This document shows, in pieces, positions 40,578 to 55,244 of a stretch of 64,000 nucleotides of DNA (positions are counted from its first letter, which is position 1; each line of letters starts with the position of its first letter). Source of the DNA: Butyrivibrio sp. VCB2006 (GTDB lineage Bacteria > Bacillota > Clostridia > Lachnospirales > Lachnospiraceae). Both the position numbers and the translations under genes were made by a program. Under the pieces are notes generated by a model. That model saw only the letters and a program-made list of their open reading frames with translations, was not told where the DNA came from and made no database searches. The stretch spans positions 124,001 to 188,000 of the forward strand of contig NZ_ATVX01000002.1 in the NCBI RefSeq assembly GCF_000420945.1. Direction: 5' to 3'.

Positions 40578-42230
40578 TTATACAGCTTCAAATTTAAGAT
40601 TATCTGCCATGAGGTCGCTCAGGAACTGCTTGCACTTCTGAGCTGCAGGTGTTGTGCAGGTTCCGCAGTCAGAACCACACAGGCGCTCTGGAGGTGTCAA
40701 TCTGTAGTGTCTCTCCATTGCCTGAAGGCATTCATGGTATGGAATCAGTGGATCAATACCGATAATTGCCATCTCAGCATACATTGGAGCTGTCACTGCT
40801 GCCCTAAGAGTCCTTGTGATACAAGGAAATTCAAGACCTCCTGGGATAGGATCACACACAAGTCCCATATTAGCCTGAAGTGCCATGGATGCAGCTCTTT
40901 CTACAGCAACTCCCACGTCAACCAAAGGCTCATCAGGTGTCACCATATATGCGATAGCTCCGGCTGCCATGGCATTACATACTCCTGATTCTCCAATACA
41001 GCCTCTGTCACCGGAAGCATTAGTATGAGTGTAGGCCAATGCTCCCAGGGCCGCAGCGATCACAAGCGCTTCAAGTTCCCGCTCCCTGCTATAGCCTCTG
41101 TCCTCTCTTACAGCGTCAAGTGCTGAATACAGATAGCCACCGCCTGTTCCCATGGGTCCAGGTACTATCTTAAAGCCAGGAATCTTAGCATTAGTTGCAT
41201 AAGCATGAGTTAAAATGTGTCTTGTAAGAGAGTCAGATATTACCTTACCTCCATCAAGATATTTCTTCCACAGCTTACCATAGATAGGAAGTGTAGGTGT
41301 ATCCTCCGCATCGTAGTCAAGCTCCTCAAGGCTGTGAATCTGCCTATCAAATATATCCCTTATCTTAGTAAAGAACGCCCAGATTTCTTCTTCGCTCCAT
41401 CCGGAGGCATCCTTTTCATACTCAATCGCCGCCTGAAGAAATGATATTCCCCTGTCACTGGCAACCTGCCTCCACTCCTCGACAGTTGAAAAGAGCTGCT
41501 TCTTTTTGGCCTTAGTAGTTACAACAGGGAGAACTGCAGGAAGGTTAACCACTAATCCAGCGCTGCCCTCCAGAATATCTTCCTCAGAGATATCAGTGTC
41601 CGTCTCTATAAAAAGAGCTGCCTTACCATCTGCATTTGAGACAATGCGATGTTCGACTATATGATCTCCATATTTTCCAGCAAGTTTAGATATCAGCTCA
41701 TCAAATCTCAACTTGCTATTTCCTGAAACATTACCATCACCAGAATCAACATCTATGACCAGTGTTCCATAGGTATCAGCCTGCCAGTTAAGCTCATATC
41801 CATAGGCTTCGTATATCCTGATCATGCCTCCGCCTACAGATGCACCGATAAGCTCGCCCTGGCTGCTTTCTCCATAGACATTTATCTTAACTGCCCTAAA
41901 GTAACCAAAATTCCCATCATCAAGTCTGAATTCATAGGATAGTTTTTTCTCCTGGGCAAGTCTGTGAGCATCAAAAAGTCTCTTATCATCTGTGGCAAAG
42001 CCCTGTACACCACCAAGATACCCTCTGTCTGTCATAAAATTCCCCAGTGACTTAAATCGGCCTATATCCTCATGCTGAAGTGAGAATACAACCTTTTGGG
42101 GCTCTTCATTTATAAGGTGTCTTGCCACATTTCCTATTCTCGCGGGACCTGCAAAGCCGCCTGATGATCCCGGCTGCATTATAGGTCCAAATACATCATT
42201 AAAAAAATCCGGATAAAATATTTTAGCCAT
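40578..42230 (-). CDS. L-serine dehydratase-like Fe-S protein (fused beta and alpha domains)
   Basis: This 550-residue protein fuses an SDH_beta-like N-terminus (GPIMQPGSSGGFAGPARIG) to an SDH_alpha domain with GCIGESGVCNAMAAGA and GLVCDPIPGG...PC, the cysteines that hold a [4Fe-4S] cluster. Such enzymes deaminate L-serine to pyruvate without PLP; relatives desulfurate L-cysteine. The usual SSSHTxG segment is altered to PGSSGGFAG. The C-terminus has an extra CGSDCGTC cluster. It is last in the sulfur/nitrogenase-like cluster, so cysteine or another sulfur amino acid is a plausible substrate. The ribosome site is GGGGAGAGG. Confidence 0.78.
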   Translation of the reverse strand: MAKIFYPDFFNDVFGPIMQPGSSGGFAGPARIGNVARHLINEEPQKVVFSLQHEDIGRFKSLGNFMTDRGYLGGVQGFATDDKRLFDAHRLAQEKKLSYEFRLDDGNFGYFRAVKINVYGESSQGELIGASVGGGMIRIYEAYGYELNWQADTYGTLVIDVDSGDGNVSGNSKLRFDELISKLAGKYGDHIVEHRIVSNADGKAALFIETDTDISEEDILEGSAGLVVNLPAVLPVVTTKAKKKQLFSTVEEWRQVASDRGISFLQAAIEYEKDASGWSEEEIWAFFTKIRDIFDRQIHSLEELDYDAEDTPTLPIYGKLWKKYLDGGKVISDSLTRHILTHAYATNAKIPGFKIVPGPMGTGGGYLYSALDAVREDRGYSRERELEALVIAAALGALAYTHTNASGDRGCIGESGVCNAMAAGAIAYMVTPDEPLVDVGVAVERAASMALQANMGLVCDPIPGGLEFPCITRTLRAAVTAPMYAEMAIIGIDPLIPYHECLQAMERHYRLTPPERLCGSDCGTCTTPAAQKCKQFLSDLMADNLKFEAV

Positions 42231-42250
42231 GTGCCTCTCCCCTAGTTGTA

Positions 42251-43411
42251 TTATGCCAGTGCCTGTCTCAAATCCTCTTTCAGATCCTCCACATCTTCAA
42301 TTCCTACAGATAATCTGAATATTCCATCAGTTACTCCGGTTCTCTTTCTCTGTTCTTCCGGAATCGGACGCTGAAGAGAAGCATTTGGAAGGTTTATAAG
42401 CGACTGAACGCCTCCAAGACTTCCAGCCTGATATATGAGTTTGAATTTTGCAAAATATGAAGGAGCTTTAGAAGCATCTTTTATCTCAAAAGAGATCATG
42501 CTGCCAAAGCCTGCCTGCTGCCTCTTTGCAAGTTTATGGTCAGGGTGCTCCTCATCCCCGGGATAGATAACTCTTTTCACATTTGGAAGGCTCTTAAGAT
42601 AATCAGCAAGGGCCTTAGCGTTTTGCTGCTGTCTCTCAAGCCTTACTGATAGCGTCTCCATGCCCCTTAATGTCAACCAGCAGTCATCCGGAGATAATGG
42701 ATTACCGGTAGCAAACACATAAAAATATAATTTCTCTCTAAGTTCTTTGGTTGCTGTTACAATCACTCCAGCCAGCACATCGTGATGACCTGCCAGGAAC
42801 TTGGTAGCACTGTGAATCACAATGTCTGCTCCAAGCTCTATAGGCTTTTGTAAAAGAGGTGACAGGAATGTATTATCTACTATCAAAAGCGCATTCTTGT
42901 CATGAGCTATTTGAGAAATAGCTTTGATGTCACTTATCCGTAGCATCGGATTGGAAGGTGTCTCTATGATAAAGCCCTTTACATCATCTGTAGCTGCAGC
43001 TCGTACTGCCTCTATATCCCAGGTATCTACAAATGAAAACAGATAGCCGTACTTACTGTACACCTGATCAAATAGTCTGTAGCTTCCGCCATAGAGATCG
43101 CTGGACACAATTATCCTATCTCCTGGTTCAAAGAGTCTGAGTACCGCATCAAGTGCCGCAAGACCGCTTGTTACTGCAAGGGCATCTGCTCCGTGTTCGA
43201 GTACTGCCACCTGCTTTTCAAGAGCTCTCCTTGTAGGTGTATTGCATCTGGCATAGGAAAAATCCTCCGGATCATGTTCCAAAGAACTATGTACGTAAGT
43301 TGCACTTCTATAAACAGGAACGCTTATGCTACCAGTCTCATCAAAAATTCCACTTCCTCTTGCTATCAAAGTATTCTCTCTACAGTTACAGTCAACATTT
43401 AGCTCCGACAT
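42251..43411 (-). CDS. Trans-sulfuration PLP enzyme (cystathionine gamma-synthase/lyase family)
   Basis: This 386-residue fold-type I PLP enzyme has YARCNTPTRRALE, DNTFLSPLLQKP and the Schiff-base lysine in SATKFLAGHHD. The family includes cystathionine gamma-synthase, beta- and gamma-lyases, methionine gamma-lyase and O-acetylhomoserine sulfhydrylase; the exact reaction is not decided by the sequence. In this operon it could assimilate a thiol released by the nitrogenase-like enzyme or supply homocysteine. It lies 8 nt after the repeat protein and 20 nt before the dehydratase. Confidence 0.85.
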   Translation of the reverse strand: MSELNVDCNCRENTLIARGSGIFDETGSISVPVYRSATYVHSSLEHDPEDFSYARCNTPTRRALEKQVAVLEHGADALAVTSGLAALDAVLRLFEPGDRIIVSSDLYGGSYRLFDQVYSKYGYLFSFVDTWDIEAVRAAATDDVKGFIIETPSNPMLRISDIKAISQIAHDKNALLIVDNTFLSPLLQKPIELGADIVIHSATKFLAGHHDVLAGVIVTATKELREKLYFYVFATGNPLSPDDCWLTLRGMETLSVRLERQQQNAKALADYLKSLPNVKRVIYPGDEEHPDHKLAKRQQAGFGSMISFEIKDASKAPSYFAKFKLIYQAGSLGGVQSLINLPNASLQRPIPEEQRKRTGVTDGIFRLSVGIEDVEDLKEDLRQALA

Positions 43412-43418
43412 ATTATTG

Positions 43419-54160: not shown

Positions 54161-54182
54161 TGTAATCACCCTTTTATAAATT

Positions 54183-54214
54183 GATGCTCCGAAGCAAATG
54201 AGCTACGGAGCATC
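54183..54214 (-). terminator. Hairpin in the cysK-malY spacer
   Basis: A 9-bp stem GATGCTCCG/CGGAGCATC with a 14-nt loop lies just before the malY-like ribosome site. No U-tract follows on the minus strand. Two weaker hairpins lie upstream in the same 139-nt spacer (near 54222-54246 and 54266-54287). It may be a weak terminator or processing site. Confidence 0.45.
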
Positions 54215-54308
54215 CTACTATCCCCAGTCCAAGCTATTTTGGCACTGGTTAATTATTTATTTTCAAAGAATTTCAAATGAGAAATTCTCTTTTGCCGAGT
54301 ACTATTTA

Positions 54309-55244
54309 TTAGTTTGCGAACAAAGGTGTAGAAAGATATCTGTCACCTGAGTCTGGAAGAAGAACTACGATGTTCTTGCCCTTATTCTCTGGTCTTTCAG
54401 CAACAATAGTAGCTGCCTTAAGTGCTGCGCCTGATGAAATACCAACAAGGATTCCTTCAGAAACTGCAAACTTCTTGCCTTCTGCGAAAGCATCGTCATT
54501 CTCAATAGCGATTACTTCATCATAAACCTTGGTGTTAAGAGTATCTGGTACAAATCCTGCACCGATTCCCTGAATCTTATGAGCGCCTGCTGTTCCCTGT
54601 GAAAGAACCGGGCTGCTTGCTGGCTCAACTGCAATGATCTTAACATCAGGATTAACTTCTTTCAGGAATTCACCAACACCTGTGATTGTTCCGCCTGTAC
54701 CAACACCAGCGATGAAGATATCAACCTGTCCATCTGTCTGCTTCCAGATCTCTGGACCTGTGGTCTTTCTGTGGATCTCTGGGTTAGCTGGGTTAACGAA
54801 CTGTCCAAGAATTACAGCTCCCTCTATTTCTTTTTCAAGCTCTTCAGCCTTGGCAATTGCTCCCTTCATACCCTTGGCACCTTCTGTGAGAACGATCTCA
54901 GCGCCGTAAGCCTTAAGAAGATTTCTTCTCTCAACACTCATTGTATCTGGAAGTGTGAGGATTGCTTTGTAGCCCTTAGCTGCTGCAACTGCTGCAAGAC
55001 CGATTCCTGTATTTCCACTTGTTGGCTCAATGATTGTTGCTCCCGGTTTGATTCTGCCACTCTTCTCAGCATCCTCTATCATACTAAGTGCAACTCTGTC
55101 TTTTACTGAACCAGCTGGATTAAGATACTCGAGCTTGGCAAGGATGTTAGCATTTGTAACTCCTGCTGCCTTGCTATATCCGTTAAGTTTAAGAAGTGGT
55201 GTTCCCCCGATAAGTTCAAGTGCGCTCTGCTTGATGTCTGCCAT
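54309..55244 (-). CDS. cysK: Cysteine synthase A (O-acetylserine sulfhydrylase)
   Basis: CysK replaces the acetyl of O-acetylserine with sulfide to make cysteine. The 311-residue protein has the PLP lysine in NPAGSVKDRVA, the substrate loop TSGNTGIG, and GTGGTITGVGEFL for phosphate binding. The gene has GGAGG before ATG, an extended -10 promoter with repeats, and heads the sulfur region. The sequence fits the A isozyme. Confidence 0.95.
   Translation of the reverse strand: MADIKQSALELIGGTPLLKLNGYSKAAGVTNANILAKLEYLNPAGSVKDRVALSMIEDAEKSGRIKPGATIIEPTSGNTGIGLAAVAAAKGYKAILTLPDTMSVERRNLLKAYGAEIVLTEGAKGMKGAIAKAEELEKEIEGAVILGQFVNPANPEIHRKTTGPEIWKQTDGQVDIFIAGVGTGGTITGVGEFLKEVNPDVKIIAVEPASSPVLSQGTAGAHKIQGIGAGFVPDTLNTKVYDEVIAIENDDAFAEGKKFAVSEGILVGISSGAALKAATIVAERPENKGKNIVVLLPDSGDRYLSTPLFAN

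What the first reader, a model, noticed from the sequence alone, without database searches (positions are those of the whole stretch)
40578..55244. Nitrogenase-like NifBHDK system embedded in a sulfur-amino-acid gene cluster
nifB, two NifX-domain genes and nifH/D/K-like genes are contiguous on one strand with a cystine-type ABC importer (coupled TAA-ATG to the second NifX gene), a trans-sulfuration enzyme, a serine-dehydratase-like Fe-S protein, a MalY-type C-S lyase, cysK and yezD. From established families, NifB makes the 8Fe core, so a NifB-derived cofactor is expected. The neighbours point to sulfur compounds, as with methylthio-alkane reductase (Mar). Whether this is Mar, a relative, or a new activity in a rumen-type Lachnospiraceae is unknown.
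Basis: partly seen in the sequence, partly recalled or inferred. Interest (0 to 1): 0.95.

Follow-up and report, generated by a model that had tools for sequence, protein, structure and literature searches.

The report
Nitrogenase-like sulfur-scavenging reductase, not nitrogen fixation
A Butyrivibrio gene cluster pairs a nitrogenase-type reductase and cofactor maker with an enzyme core that is a sister group of the carbon-sulfur-bond-cutting methylthio-alkane reductase, so this "nifH" bacterium probably strips sulfur from imported organic compounds rather than fixing nitrogen; in a sample of its family, most nifH-bearing genomes carry such an enzyme core and no nitrogenase.

Summary
On the minus strand, 55244 to 40578, lie cysK, patB, a YezD/OscA-like ORF, nifB, nifX1, nifH, D, K, nifX2, a cystine-type ABC importer, a MORN-like ORF, a trans-sulfuration enzyme and an SDH-like protein. 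D and K are closest to R. rubrum methylthio-alkane reductase (Mar; 426 and 410 bits), far from nitrogenase (152 bits or less). D keeps Mar's cluster ligands and Arg428-His429. Yet it lies in a supported sister clade in which 0 of 78 D have Mar's His194 or Cys73 and 77 of 77 carry an extra Cys63. Its reductase is Nif-type NifH, not MarH. The genome shows no second DK pair, no NIR_SIR (sulfite reductase) domain and no PAPS reductase. Predicted role: ATP-driven C-S cleavage of an imported sulfur amino-acid-like compound, with thiol or sulfide passed to CysK. In sampled Lachnospiraceae, 36 of 45 NifH-positive genomes have no NifD; 28 of the 36 were shown to carry a D with the Mar signature, mostly of two related outer types. 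This may explain gut and rumen nifH without matching N2 fixation. Substrate and activity are untested; the sulfur-gene link was noted in 2012.

The parts
54309..55244 (-). cysK, O-acetylserine sulfhydrylase
   Evidence: TIGR01139 449.6 bits, over its cut-off 350.95
52970..54169 (-). patB/malY-type cysteine-S-conjugate beta-lyase (PLP)
   Evidence: TIGR04350 471 bits, over cut-off 340; solved PatB 6qp3 354 bits
52746..52897 (-). YezD/OscA-like 50-aa ORF (sulfur starvation response)
   Evidence: NF033785 34.5 bits, under cut-off 85; weak
51828..52700 (-). nifB, radical-SAM part only (no NifX tail)
   Evidence: solved NifB 7bi7 315 bits, HPC, CNxxCxFC, RPGV and CxxCRADA motifs kept; TIGR01290 262.7 bits, under cut-off 343.65 of the longer model
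51449..51835 (-). nifX-like 1 (cofactor carrier)
   Evidence: PF02579 77.4 bits
51286..51322 (-). hairpin plus T-run before nifH (terminator- or attenuator-like)
   Evidence: also in near-copy L023, and of the other 38 loci read only one has any such hairpin before H
50408..51250 (-). nifH, Nif-type ATP-dependent reductase
   Evidence: TIGR01287 466.2 bits over cut-off; 1cp2 480 bits vs MarH 291 bits
48937..50385 (-). D subunit (482 aa), sister clade of MarD, predicted [Fe8S9C]-type active site
   Evidence: 9d9u/9fmg MarD 426 bits vs 152 for the best nitrogenase chain; model of the 99%-identical P0001 to 9fmg_A TM 0.89; start; ligands
47556..48917 (-). K subunit, MarK-like, three P-cluster Cys kept
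   Evidence: 9d9u_C 410 bits vs 79 for the next; Cys32/56/121 in 76 of 76 K read
47170..47535 (-). nifX-like 2, directly after K
   Evidence: PF02579 31.4 bits; a NifX-type gene stands two genes after D in 38 of 79 loci
46456..47169 (-). ABC permease 1, amino-acid type
   Evidence: position and homologues; ATG abuts the nifX2 stop
45752..46459 (-). ABC permease 2, amino-acid type (best model: cystine permease)
   Evidence: NF011680 119 bits, under cut-off 300
45006..45758 (-). ABC importer ATPase (TcyN-like)
   Evidence: NF008428 327.5 bits, under cut-off 406
44064..44972 (-). substrate-binding protein
   Evidence: closest solved 4eq9 (101 bits) and 4c0r (92 bits)
43419..44033 (-). MORN_2-like 204-aa protein, role unknown
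   Evidence: PF07661 24.9 bits, under cut-off 29.6; in 8 of 79 loci
42251..43411 (-). Cys/Met-metabolism PLP enzyme, cystathionine gamma-lyase / homocysteine desulfhydrase type
   Evidence: NF005810 418.5 bits, under cut-off 594; solved 7d7o 356 bits
40578..42230 (-). fused serine-dehydratase-like Fe-S protein (beta+alpha)
   Evidence: PF03313 87.7 bits, over cut-off; GC, CDP and PC cysteines aligned to 4rqo

Best explanation
The cluster encodes a NifH reductase, a NifB cofactor maker and a DK pair that is a sister group of methylthio-alkane reductase, and it is predicted to import a sulfur-containing amino-acid-like compound, cut its C-S bond with ATP-driven electrons at a likely [Fe8S9C] cluster, and pass the freed thiol or sulfide to CysK and trans-sulfuration enzymes. 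Shown here: gene content and order, homology, cluster-ligand residues, separate clade, absence of any other DK pair and of NIR_SIR and PAPS-reductase domains in this genome. Inferred: NifB builds the carbide-centred 8Fe core and the NifX proteins carry it; NifH feeds a P-cluster held by Cys66/91/158 of D and Cys32/56/121 of K (Mar numbering); the active cluster sits on Cys270 and His429 beside Arg428, as in Mar. Inferred more weakly: the substrate is a thioether or other C-S amino acid, because the importer is cystine/amino-acid type, PatB and the gamma-lyase act on S-substituted amino acids, and the pocket differs from Mar; sister lineages that use Ssu/Tau-type importers would take other organosulfur compounds.
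For: Homology: D and K to Mar, fold. Residues: core signature in 77 of 78 main D read, the exception being truncated. Clade. Context: of 31 loci with at least 7 kb on both sides of D, 24 have CysK, the PLP enzyme or PatB and 29 have an amino-acid- or Ssu-type importer; of 9 true nif loci of the same family, 0 have CysK, PatB, the PLP enzyme or an amino-acid-type permease. No other DK pair, no NIR_SIR, no PAPS reductase. Across Lachnospiraceae, NIR_SIR occurs in 6 of 36 NifH-positive, NifD-negative genomes, 6 of 9 NifD-positive and 134 of 254 others; 6/36 vs 134/254, Fisher p = 5e-5, as expected if organic sulfur replaces sulfate/sulfite assimilation. CysK is over its curated cut-off.
Against: No activity, transcript or substrate data. 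7 of the 31 well-flanked loci and 38 of all 79 (many truncated) show no CysK, PLP enzyme or PatB; the SDH-like protein is in only 14 of 79. The importer control is weaker than the sulfur-gene control: 5 of the 9 true nif loci also have an ABC importer, of another kind (35-39 bits to the Ssu-type permeases). A terminator-like hairpin separates the cysK-nifX1 genes from nifH onward. No Rfam family, riboswitches included, reached its gathering score in the window or in seven related loci. The NIR_SIR contrast ignores relatedness between genera. PatB and the gamma-lyase could serve housekeeping sulfur metabolism.
Confidence: 0.6

Rival explanations
1. It is a methylthio-alkane reductase in function: it likely makes methanethiol from small methylthio compounds for methionine synthesis, and the pocket changes are neutral.
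For: Mar is the closest solved enzyme; W195, F199, C270, H375, R428, H429 are kept; a trans-sulfuration enzyme is present.
Against: Separate clade; His194 and Cys73 absent in 78 of 78, while Trp195, His194 and His375 surround S2B in the Mar structure (PMC12552129); Nif-type H; a polar amino-acid-type importer, which neutral volatile substrates would not need; CysK points to sulfide.
Confidence: 0.2
2. It is a sulfonate reductase that works like IsrBHDK and releases sulfite.
For: Sister lineages of this clade sit beside Ssu/Tau-type importers, as Isr does; Isr is reported in intestinal bacteria (PMC11423573, abstract).
Against: By that paper IsrD lacks two of three P-cluster Cys and Cys275; the window D has all. 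IsrB resembles NifB only in the radical SAM motif; this NifB is close to solved NifB. The genome has no NIR_SIR domain to use sulfite. The window importer is amino-acid type.
Confidence: 0.08
3. It is a nitrogenase or an N2-capable group IV enzyme.
For: NifH is over the NCBI NifH cut-off; a group IV enzyme of Endomicrobium proavitum is reported to fix N2 (passages of PMC11257099; Discussion of PMC4995403); Igai et al. measured 15N2 incorporation in human faeces and saw no reason to exclude such Clostridiales.
Against: No NifE/N or other DK pair in the genome; best NifD score 155.5 bits vs cut-off 653.55; the His ligand lies in the Mar loop; sulfur genes, not nif genes, around it.
Confidence: 0.04
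4. DK is a cofactor scaffold (NifEN-like) rather than an enzyme.
For: D scores best with the NifE model among NCBIfam (178.8 bits, under cut-off 505.1).
Against: There is no second DK pair to receive a cofactor, and the Mar active-site ligands are kept.
Confidence: 0.04

Closest known systems
Methylthio-alkane reductase MarBHDK (Rhodospirillum rubrum; PDB 9fmg, 9d9u)
   Same: D and K homology over nearly full length, P-cluster Cys, Cys270, His375, Arg428-His429, Trp195, Phe199; a NifB partner; sulfur context
   Different: Sister clade; Cys63 gained; no His194 or Cys73; Nif-type NifH instead of MarH; an amino-acid-type importer, PatB, CysK and SDH-like protein in the run
Isethionate reductase IsrBHDK (Rhodobacter capsulatus)
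   Same: Group IV nitrogenase-like sulfur assimilation with its own ABC importer
   Different: IsrD lacks the cluster ligands, IsrB is not NifB-like, sulfite is released, the importer is Ssu-type
Mo-nitrogenase NifBHDKEN (Clostridium, Lachnospiraceae)
   Same: NifH and NifB homology; P-cluster and Cys275-type ligands
   Different: No NifEN, different His ligand loop, no Nif-level NifD score, sulfur neighbours
Nitrogenase-like sequences with Cys275 but no His442 (Dos Santos 2012, PMC3464626)
   Same: Their light-green clade fits these proteins by ligands, and they noted that Cys275-bearing ones are commonly associated with O-acetylhomoserine sulfhydrylase or cysteine synthase, others with ABC importers
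   Different: In the parts read (section 11 and passages): no Mar pocket signature, no importer modules, no gut NifH link; Mar was not yet known
Heliophilum fasciatum NflDK set (PMC9147875, passages)
   Same: One NifH-like protein proposed to serve both a dinitrogenase and MarDK, and Mar proposed to make up for a lack of sulfite reduction: the same two arguments as here
   Different: Its NflDK5 is in the Mar clade itself; no importer-DK modules in the passages seen

Membership tests
Methylthio-alkane reductase (Mar) | P-cluster cysteines: D 66, 91, 158; K 32, 56, 121 | tested here: met
   D 77/77, 78/78, 78/78; K 76/76 each; the window's own residues
Methylthio-alkane reductase (Mar) | Cluster ligands Cys270 and His429 with Arg428 | tested here: met
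   78 of 78 main D of related loci; window's own residues aligned
Methylthio-alkane reductase (Mar) | Pocket residues Cys73, Gln74, His194, Trp195, Phe199 | tested here: not met
   Window has Thr, Ile, Val, Trp, Phe; His194 and Cys73 in 0 of 78, in 13 of 13 Mar
Methylthio-alkane reductase (Mar) | D inside the Mar clade | tested here: not met
   sister clade; 35 rows 99*, Mar 12 rows 100* (quick tree, no bootstrap)
Methylthio-alkane reductase (Mar) | MarH-type reductase | tested here: not met
   MarH 291 vs Cp NifH 480 bits; MarH group split off at 100*
Methylthio-alkane reductase (Mar) | Reduces methylthio compounds to methanethiol and hydrocarbon | not testable with these tools
   needs enzyme assay
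Mo-nitrogenase | NifD at curated score, and NifE/NifN | tested here: not met
   155.5 vs 653.55 bits; only two PF00148 genes in the genome
Mo-nitrogenase | NifH at curated score | tested here: met
   465.7 vs 394.35 bits
Mo-nitrogenase | N2 reduction | not testable with these tools
   needs 15N2 assay
Isethionate reductase (Isr) | IsrD with a single P-cluster Cys, no Cys275; IsrB unlike NifB | tested here: not met
   all ligands present; NifB 315 bits to solved NifB; Isr features from PMC11423573
NifB | Radical SAM and cluster motifs of solved NifB | tested here: met
   alignment; the long-model cut-off is missed, the NifX tail being absent

The most novel reading that the evidence does not exclude
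A third class of nitrogenase-like sulfur enzyme: DK modules, each paired with its own importer (amino-acid or Ssu/Tau type), share one NifH and one NifB and reductively desulfurise different imported organosulfur compounds; in the window's line these are sulfur amino acids or cysteine/glutathione-type conjugates. Most nifH of Lachnospiraceae, the kind counted as gut and rumen diazotrophs, belongs to such Mar-like systems and not to nitrogen fixation.
Probability: 0.45. Interest if true: 0.88.

Novelty: new variant of a known kind. Interest (0 to 1): 0.74.

Why it matters
Surveys use nifH as the marker of nitrogen fixation. One counted 23% of the rumen genomes it screened as nitrogenase-bearing by NifH while citing negligible rumen N2 fixation (PMC6776011, passages); another placed ten of 11 NifH homologues of public human faecal metagenomes with Lachnospira/Butyrivibrio-like cluster III (PMC4995403, passages). 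Here 36 of 45 NifH-positive Lachnospiraceae genomes have no NifD, and 28 of the 36 carry a D with the Mar signature. If right, much gut nifH reports organosulfur scavenging. It would also widen the range of C-S bonds cut by [Fe8S9C]-type clusters, with possible release of hydrocarbons, thiols or sulfide in animal guts.

Tried and rejected
Riboswitch or other Rfam control: none at gathering score in the window or in seven related loci. A conserved attenuator before nifH: the hairpin is in the window and its near-copy L023; of the 39 loci read (L023 included) only one other has any such hairpin, and the leader fold is not unusual (z -1.55). Substrate from the binding protein: the closest solved proteins are 4eq9 and 4c0r, which I recall as glutathione-binding GshT of streptococci; a literature listing shows GshT papers but none was read, so this stays a hint. 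SDH-like protein as the key partner: rejected as essential, since 14 of 79 loci have it. Nitrogenase, Isr and scaffold readings: see rivals. Literature: 10 searches listed no paper that gives this D/K clade a sulfur role in Butyrivibrio; only open-licence PMC papers were searched and listings were capped; North 2020, the original Mar paper, is known to me from citing papers and recall. My first count of importers in the true nif loci could not see Ssu-type ones; one search repaired it and the text was changed.
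Full report
WHAT IS THERE. The minus strand from 55244 to 40578 reads cysK, patB, YezD/OscA-like ORF, nifB, nifX1, nifH, D, K, nifX2, two permeases, ATPase, binding protein, MORN_2-like ORF, Cys/Met PLP enzyme and a fused SDH-like Fe-S protein. D starts at ATG 50385; my D queries carried one extra residue. From nifH to the SDH-like gene there are eleven genes with gaps of at most 33 bases. A hairpin with a T-run (51286-51322) lies between nifX1 and nifH. Locus L023, from a goat-ileum Butyrivibrio, carries a near-identical cluster, so the source is Butyrivibrio or very near it.

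WHAT D AND K ARE. In the PDB, D is closest to MarD (9d9u and 9fmg, 426 bits), the next chain scoring 152 bits; K is closest to MarK (410 bits vs 79). The D model (mean pLDDT 78) was made for P0001, which differs from the window D at three residues; it matches 9fmg_A with TM 0.89 at 41% identity, while the Nif chains listed give about 0.65-0.75. By the Mar structure paper (PMC12552129; sections 4 and 12, and parts 1-2 of 3 of section 5, read) the cluster ligands are Cys270 and His429 beside Arg428, with Cys73, Gln74, His194, Trp195, Phe199 and His375 around the cluster. I aligned the main D of 78 of 79 related loci (L050_5 did not reach the alignment) with 13 Mar D proteins. Kept in all 78: Cys91, Cys158, Trp195, Phe199, Cys270, His375, His376, Arg428, His429; Cys66 in 77 of 77, one row being truncated. 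Changed: His194 in 0 of 78 (Ile 53, Thr 13, Val 7, others 5), Cys73 in 0 of 78, Gln74 in 12 of 78; an extra Cys63 in 77 of 77. Mar: His194, Cys73 and Gly63 in 13 of 13. The P-cluster Cys of K are kept in 76 of 76.

TREE. In a 70-row tree (quick method, SH-aLRT, no bootstrap) 35 window-clade D form one group (99*), 12 Mar another (100*), and the two are sisters (95*). P0001 stands for the window. A further six-row group branches just outside (95*): Cys73 in six of six, Val or Ile at 194, Cys63 in five of six, so Cys63 is not the window clade's alone. Further out lie two other Butyrivibrio D types, one with Tyr376, one without Arg428/His429. I chose the rows; two have long branches.

REDUCTASE AND COFACTOR. 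The window NifH scores 480 bits with C. pasteurianum NifH and 291 with MarH. In a 75-row tree (quick) MarH, a Chlorohelix plasmid H and the H of G355 split off at 100*; the other DK-linked H fall with Nif-type H, and most form a set (57 rows, support 88, not starred) apart from NifH of true nif clusters. Two DK-linked H stand outside it: L040_9 inside the true-nif set and L041_9 near the base. NifB keeps the motifs of solved NifB.

GENOME. Two PF00148 genes, D and K, were found in the genome (99.99% complete), one NifH over cut-off, no NIR_SIR domain, no PAPS reductase domain. So nitrogen fixation by known gene sets, and sulfate or sulfite assimilation by these domains, are not encoded.

NEIGHBOURS ELSEWHERE. 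79 loci of this clade come from one scan, which kept the best 80 of 132 relatives: Lachnospiraceae, Treponema and other spirochaetes, an Oscillospiraceae MAG, Coriobacteria, Pectinatus, a planctomycete MAG and others. K is directly beside the main D in 78 of 79. Of 31 loci with at least 7 kb on both sides of D, 24 have CysK, the PLP enzyme or PatB; 29 have an importer (17 with an amino-acid-type and 13 with an Ssu/Tau-type permease). Of all 79, truncated ones included, 41 and 64. Control: of 9 true nif loci of the family, 0 have CysK, PatB, the PLP enzyme or an amino-acid-type permease; 5 have another ABC importer, only weakly like the Ssu type (35-39 bits), one an SDH-like hit and 5 a relative of the MORN-like protein. 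19 of 79 loci hold two D genes, none with more than one H in the stretch. The T. saccharophilum plasmid shows this with named genes: an OAH-sulfhydrylase family gene, cysK, radical SAM, NifX and nifH, then two DK pairs and an importer. Neighbour labels come from blastp to the window proteins plus Pfam and NCBIfam scans of a few representatives. One NifH for several DK, and Mar in place of sulfite reduction, were proposed before for Heliophilum fasciatum (PMC9147875, passages).

GUT NIFH. In 299 Lachnospiraceae genomes (nearly one per genus) 45 have NifH over the curated cut-off. Nine of the 45 have a NifD at 631-684 bits (two over the cut-off); the other 36 score at most 160. I read the best D in 29 loci, 28 of them in NifD-negative genomes: 28 of 29 have Trp195, Phe199, Cys270, His375, Arg428, His429, that is 27 NifD-negative genomes plus the window's own, 28 of 36. 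By residues alone, 16 of these 28 are the outer Tyr376 type, 8 the six-row-group type, 3 the window type (own included) and 1 another; so the window's own type is the minority. G221 lacks the signature; G031, G084, G176, G211, G288, G289 and G355 were not read. That NifH serves these DK is inferred. NIR_SIR is in 6 of the 36, 6 of the 9 and 134 of the other 254 genomes; 6/36 vs 134/254 gives p = 5e-5, relatedness not corrected.

HOW IT WOULD WORK. The importer brings in an organosulfur amino-acid-like compound; NifH spends ATP to reduce DK; the [Fe8S9C]-type cluster built by NifB cuts the C-S bond; thiol or sulfide goes to CysK and the trans-sulfuration enzyme; PatB and the SDH-like protein would handle S-substituted amino acids. 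Gene identities are shown; the reaction is inferred from Mar, and the substrate is the weakest step.

WHAT IS KNOWN. Mar (PMC12552129) and Isr (PMC11423573; abstract, parts 1-3 of 9 of the text and the Discussion read) show that nitrogenase-like enzymes assimilate sulfur. Dos Santos 2012 (PMC3464626; section 11 and passages) noted cysteine synthase and sulfhydrylase beside such genes, and ABC importers. A 2026 spirochaete paper notes D, K and a cysteine synthase in one operon (PMC13067680, passages). Against the simple view, a faecal study reports 15N2 incorporation and treats these Clostridiales as candidate fixers (PMC4995403, passages and Discussion). Not seen in what I read: the sister clade and its pocket signature, its pairing with Nif-type H, the importer modules and the size of the nifH confusion in this family.

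Noticed in passing
window 51286-51322 (-): 17-pair hairpin with T-run between nifX1 and nifH; could end or attenuate the upstream transcript. Seen also in the near-copy L023 and, as a different hairpin, in L076.
   Followed up: partly
window 43419-44033 (-) and true nif loci L177-L181: The MORN_2-like protein has relatives in 8 of 79 clade loci and clear ones (126-156 bits) in 5 of 9 true nif loci of Lachnospiraceae: a shared accessory of nif and nif-like clusters?
   Followed up: partly
L108, L112, L115 and L137-L152: A second Lachnospiraceae D type with Ser63 and Tyr376; in L108, L112 and L115 it lies near CysK and NifH. In the family sample it is commoner than the window type.
   Followed up: partly
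L109, L112, L115, L116: A third D type in the same genus keeps Cys270 but lacks Trp195 and Arg428/His429: another unassigned nitrogenase-like enzyme.
   Followed up: no
L056, L057, L058, L061, L088: Genes of one family, an M20 amidohydrolase where scanned (L056), lie near DK and could free amino-acid conjugates before C-S cleavage.
   Followed up: no
L026:11545-12813 and the homologue in L028: A PF03313 protein (cysteine-desulfidase-like by recall) follows the importer; the window has its fused SDH-like protein further downstream of its own importer.
   Followed up: partly
L102 (Treponema saccharophilum plasmid pTS2): Two DK pairs, nifH, the radical-SAM gene and cysK on a 382-kb plasmid near an IS30 transposase and a type I-C CRISPR system: the system may move between hosts.
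   Followed up: partly
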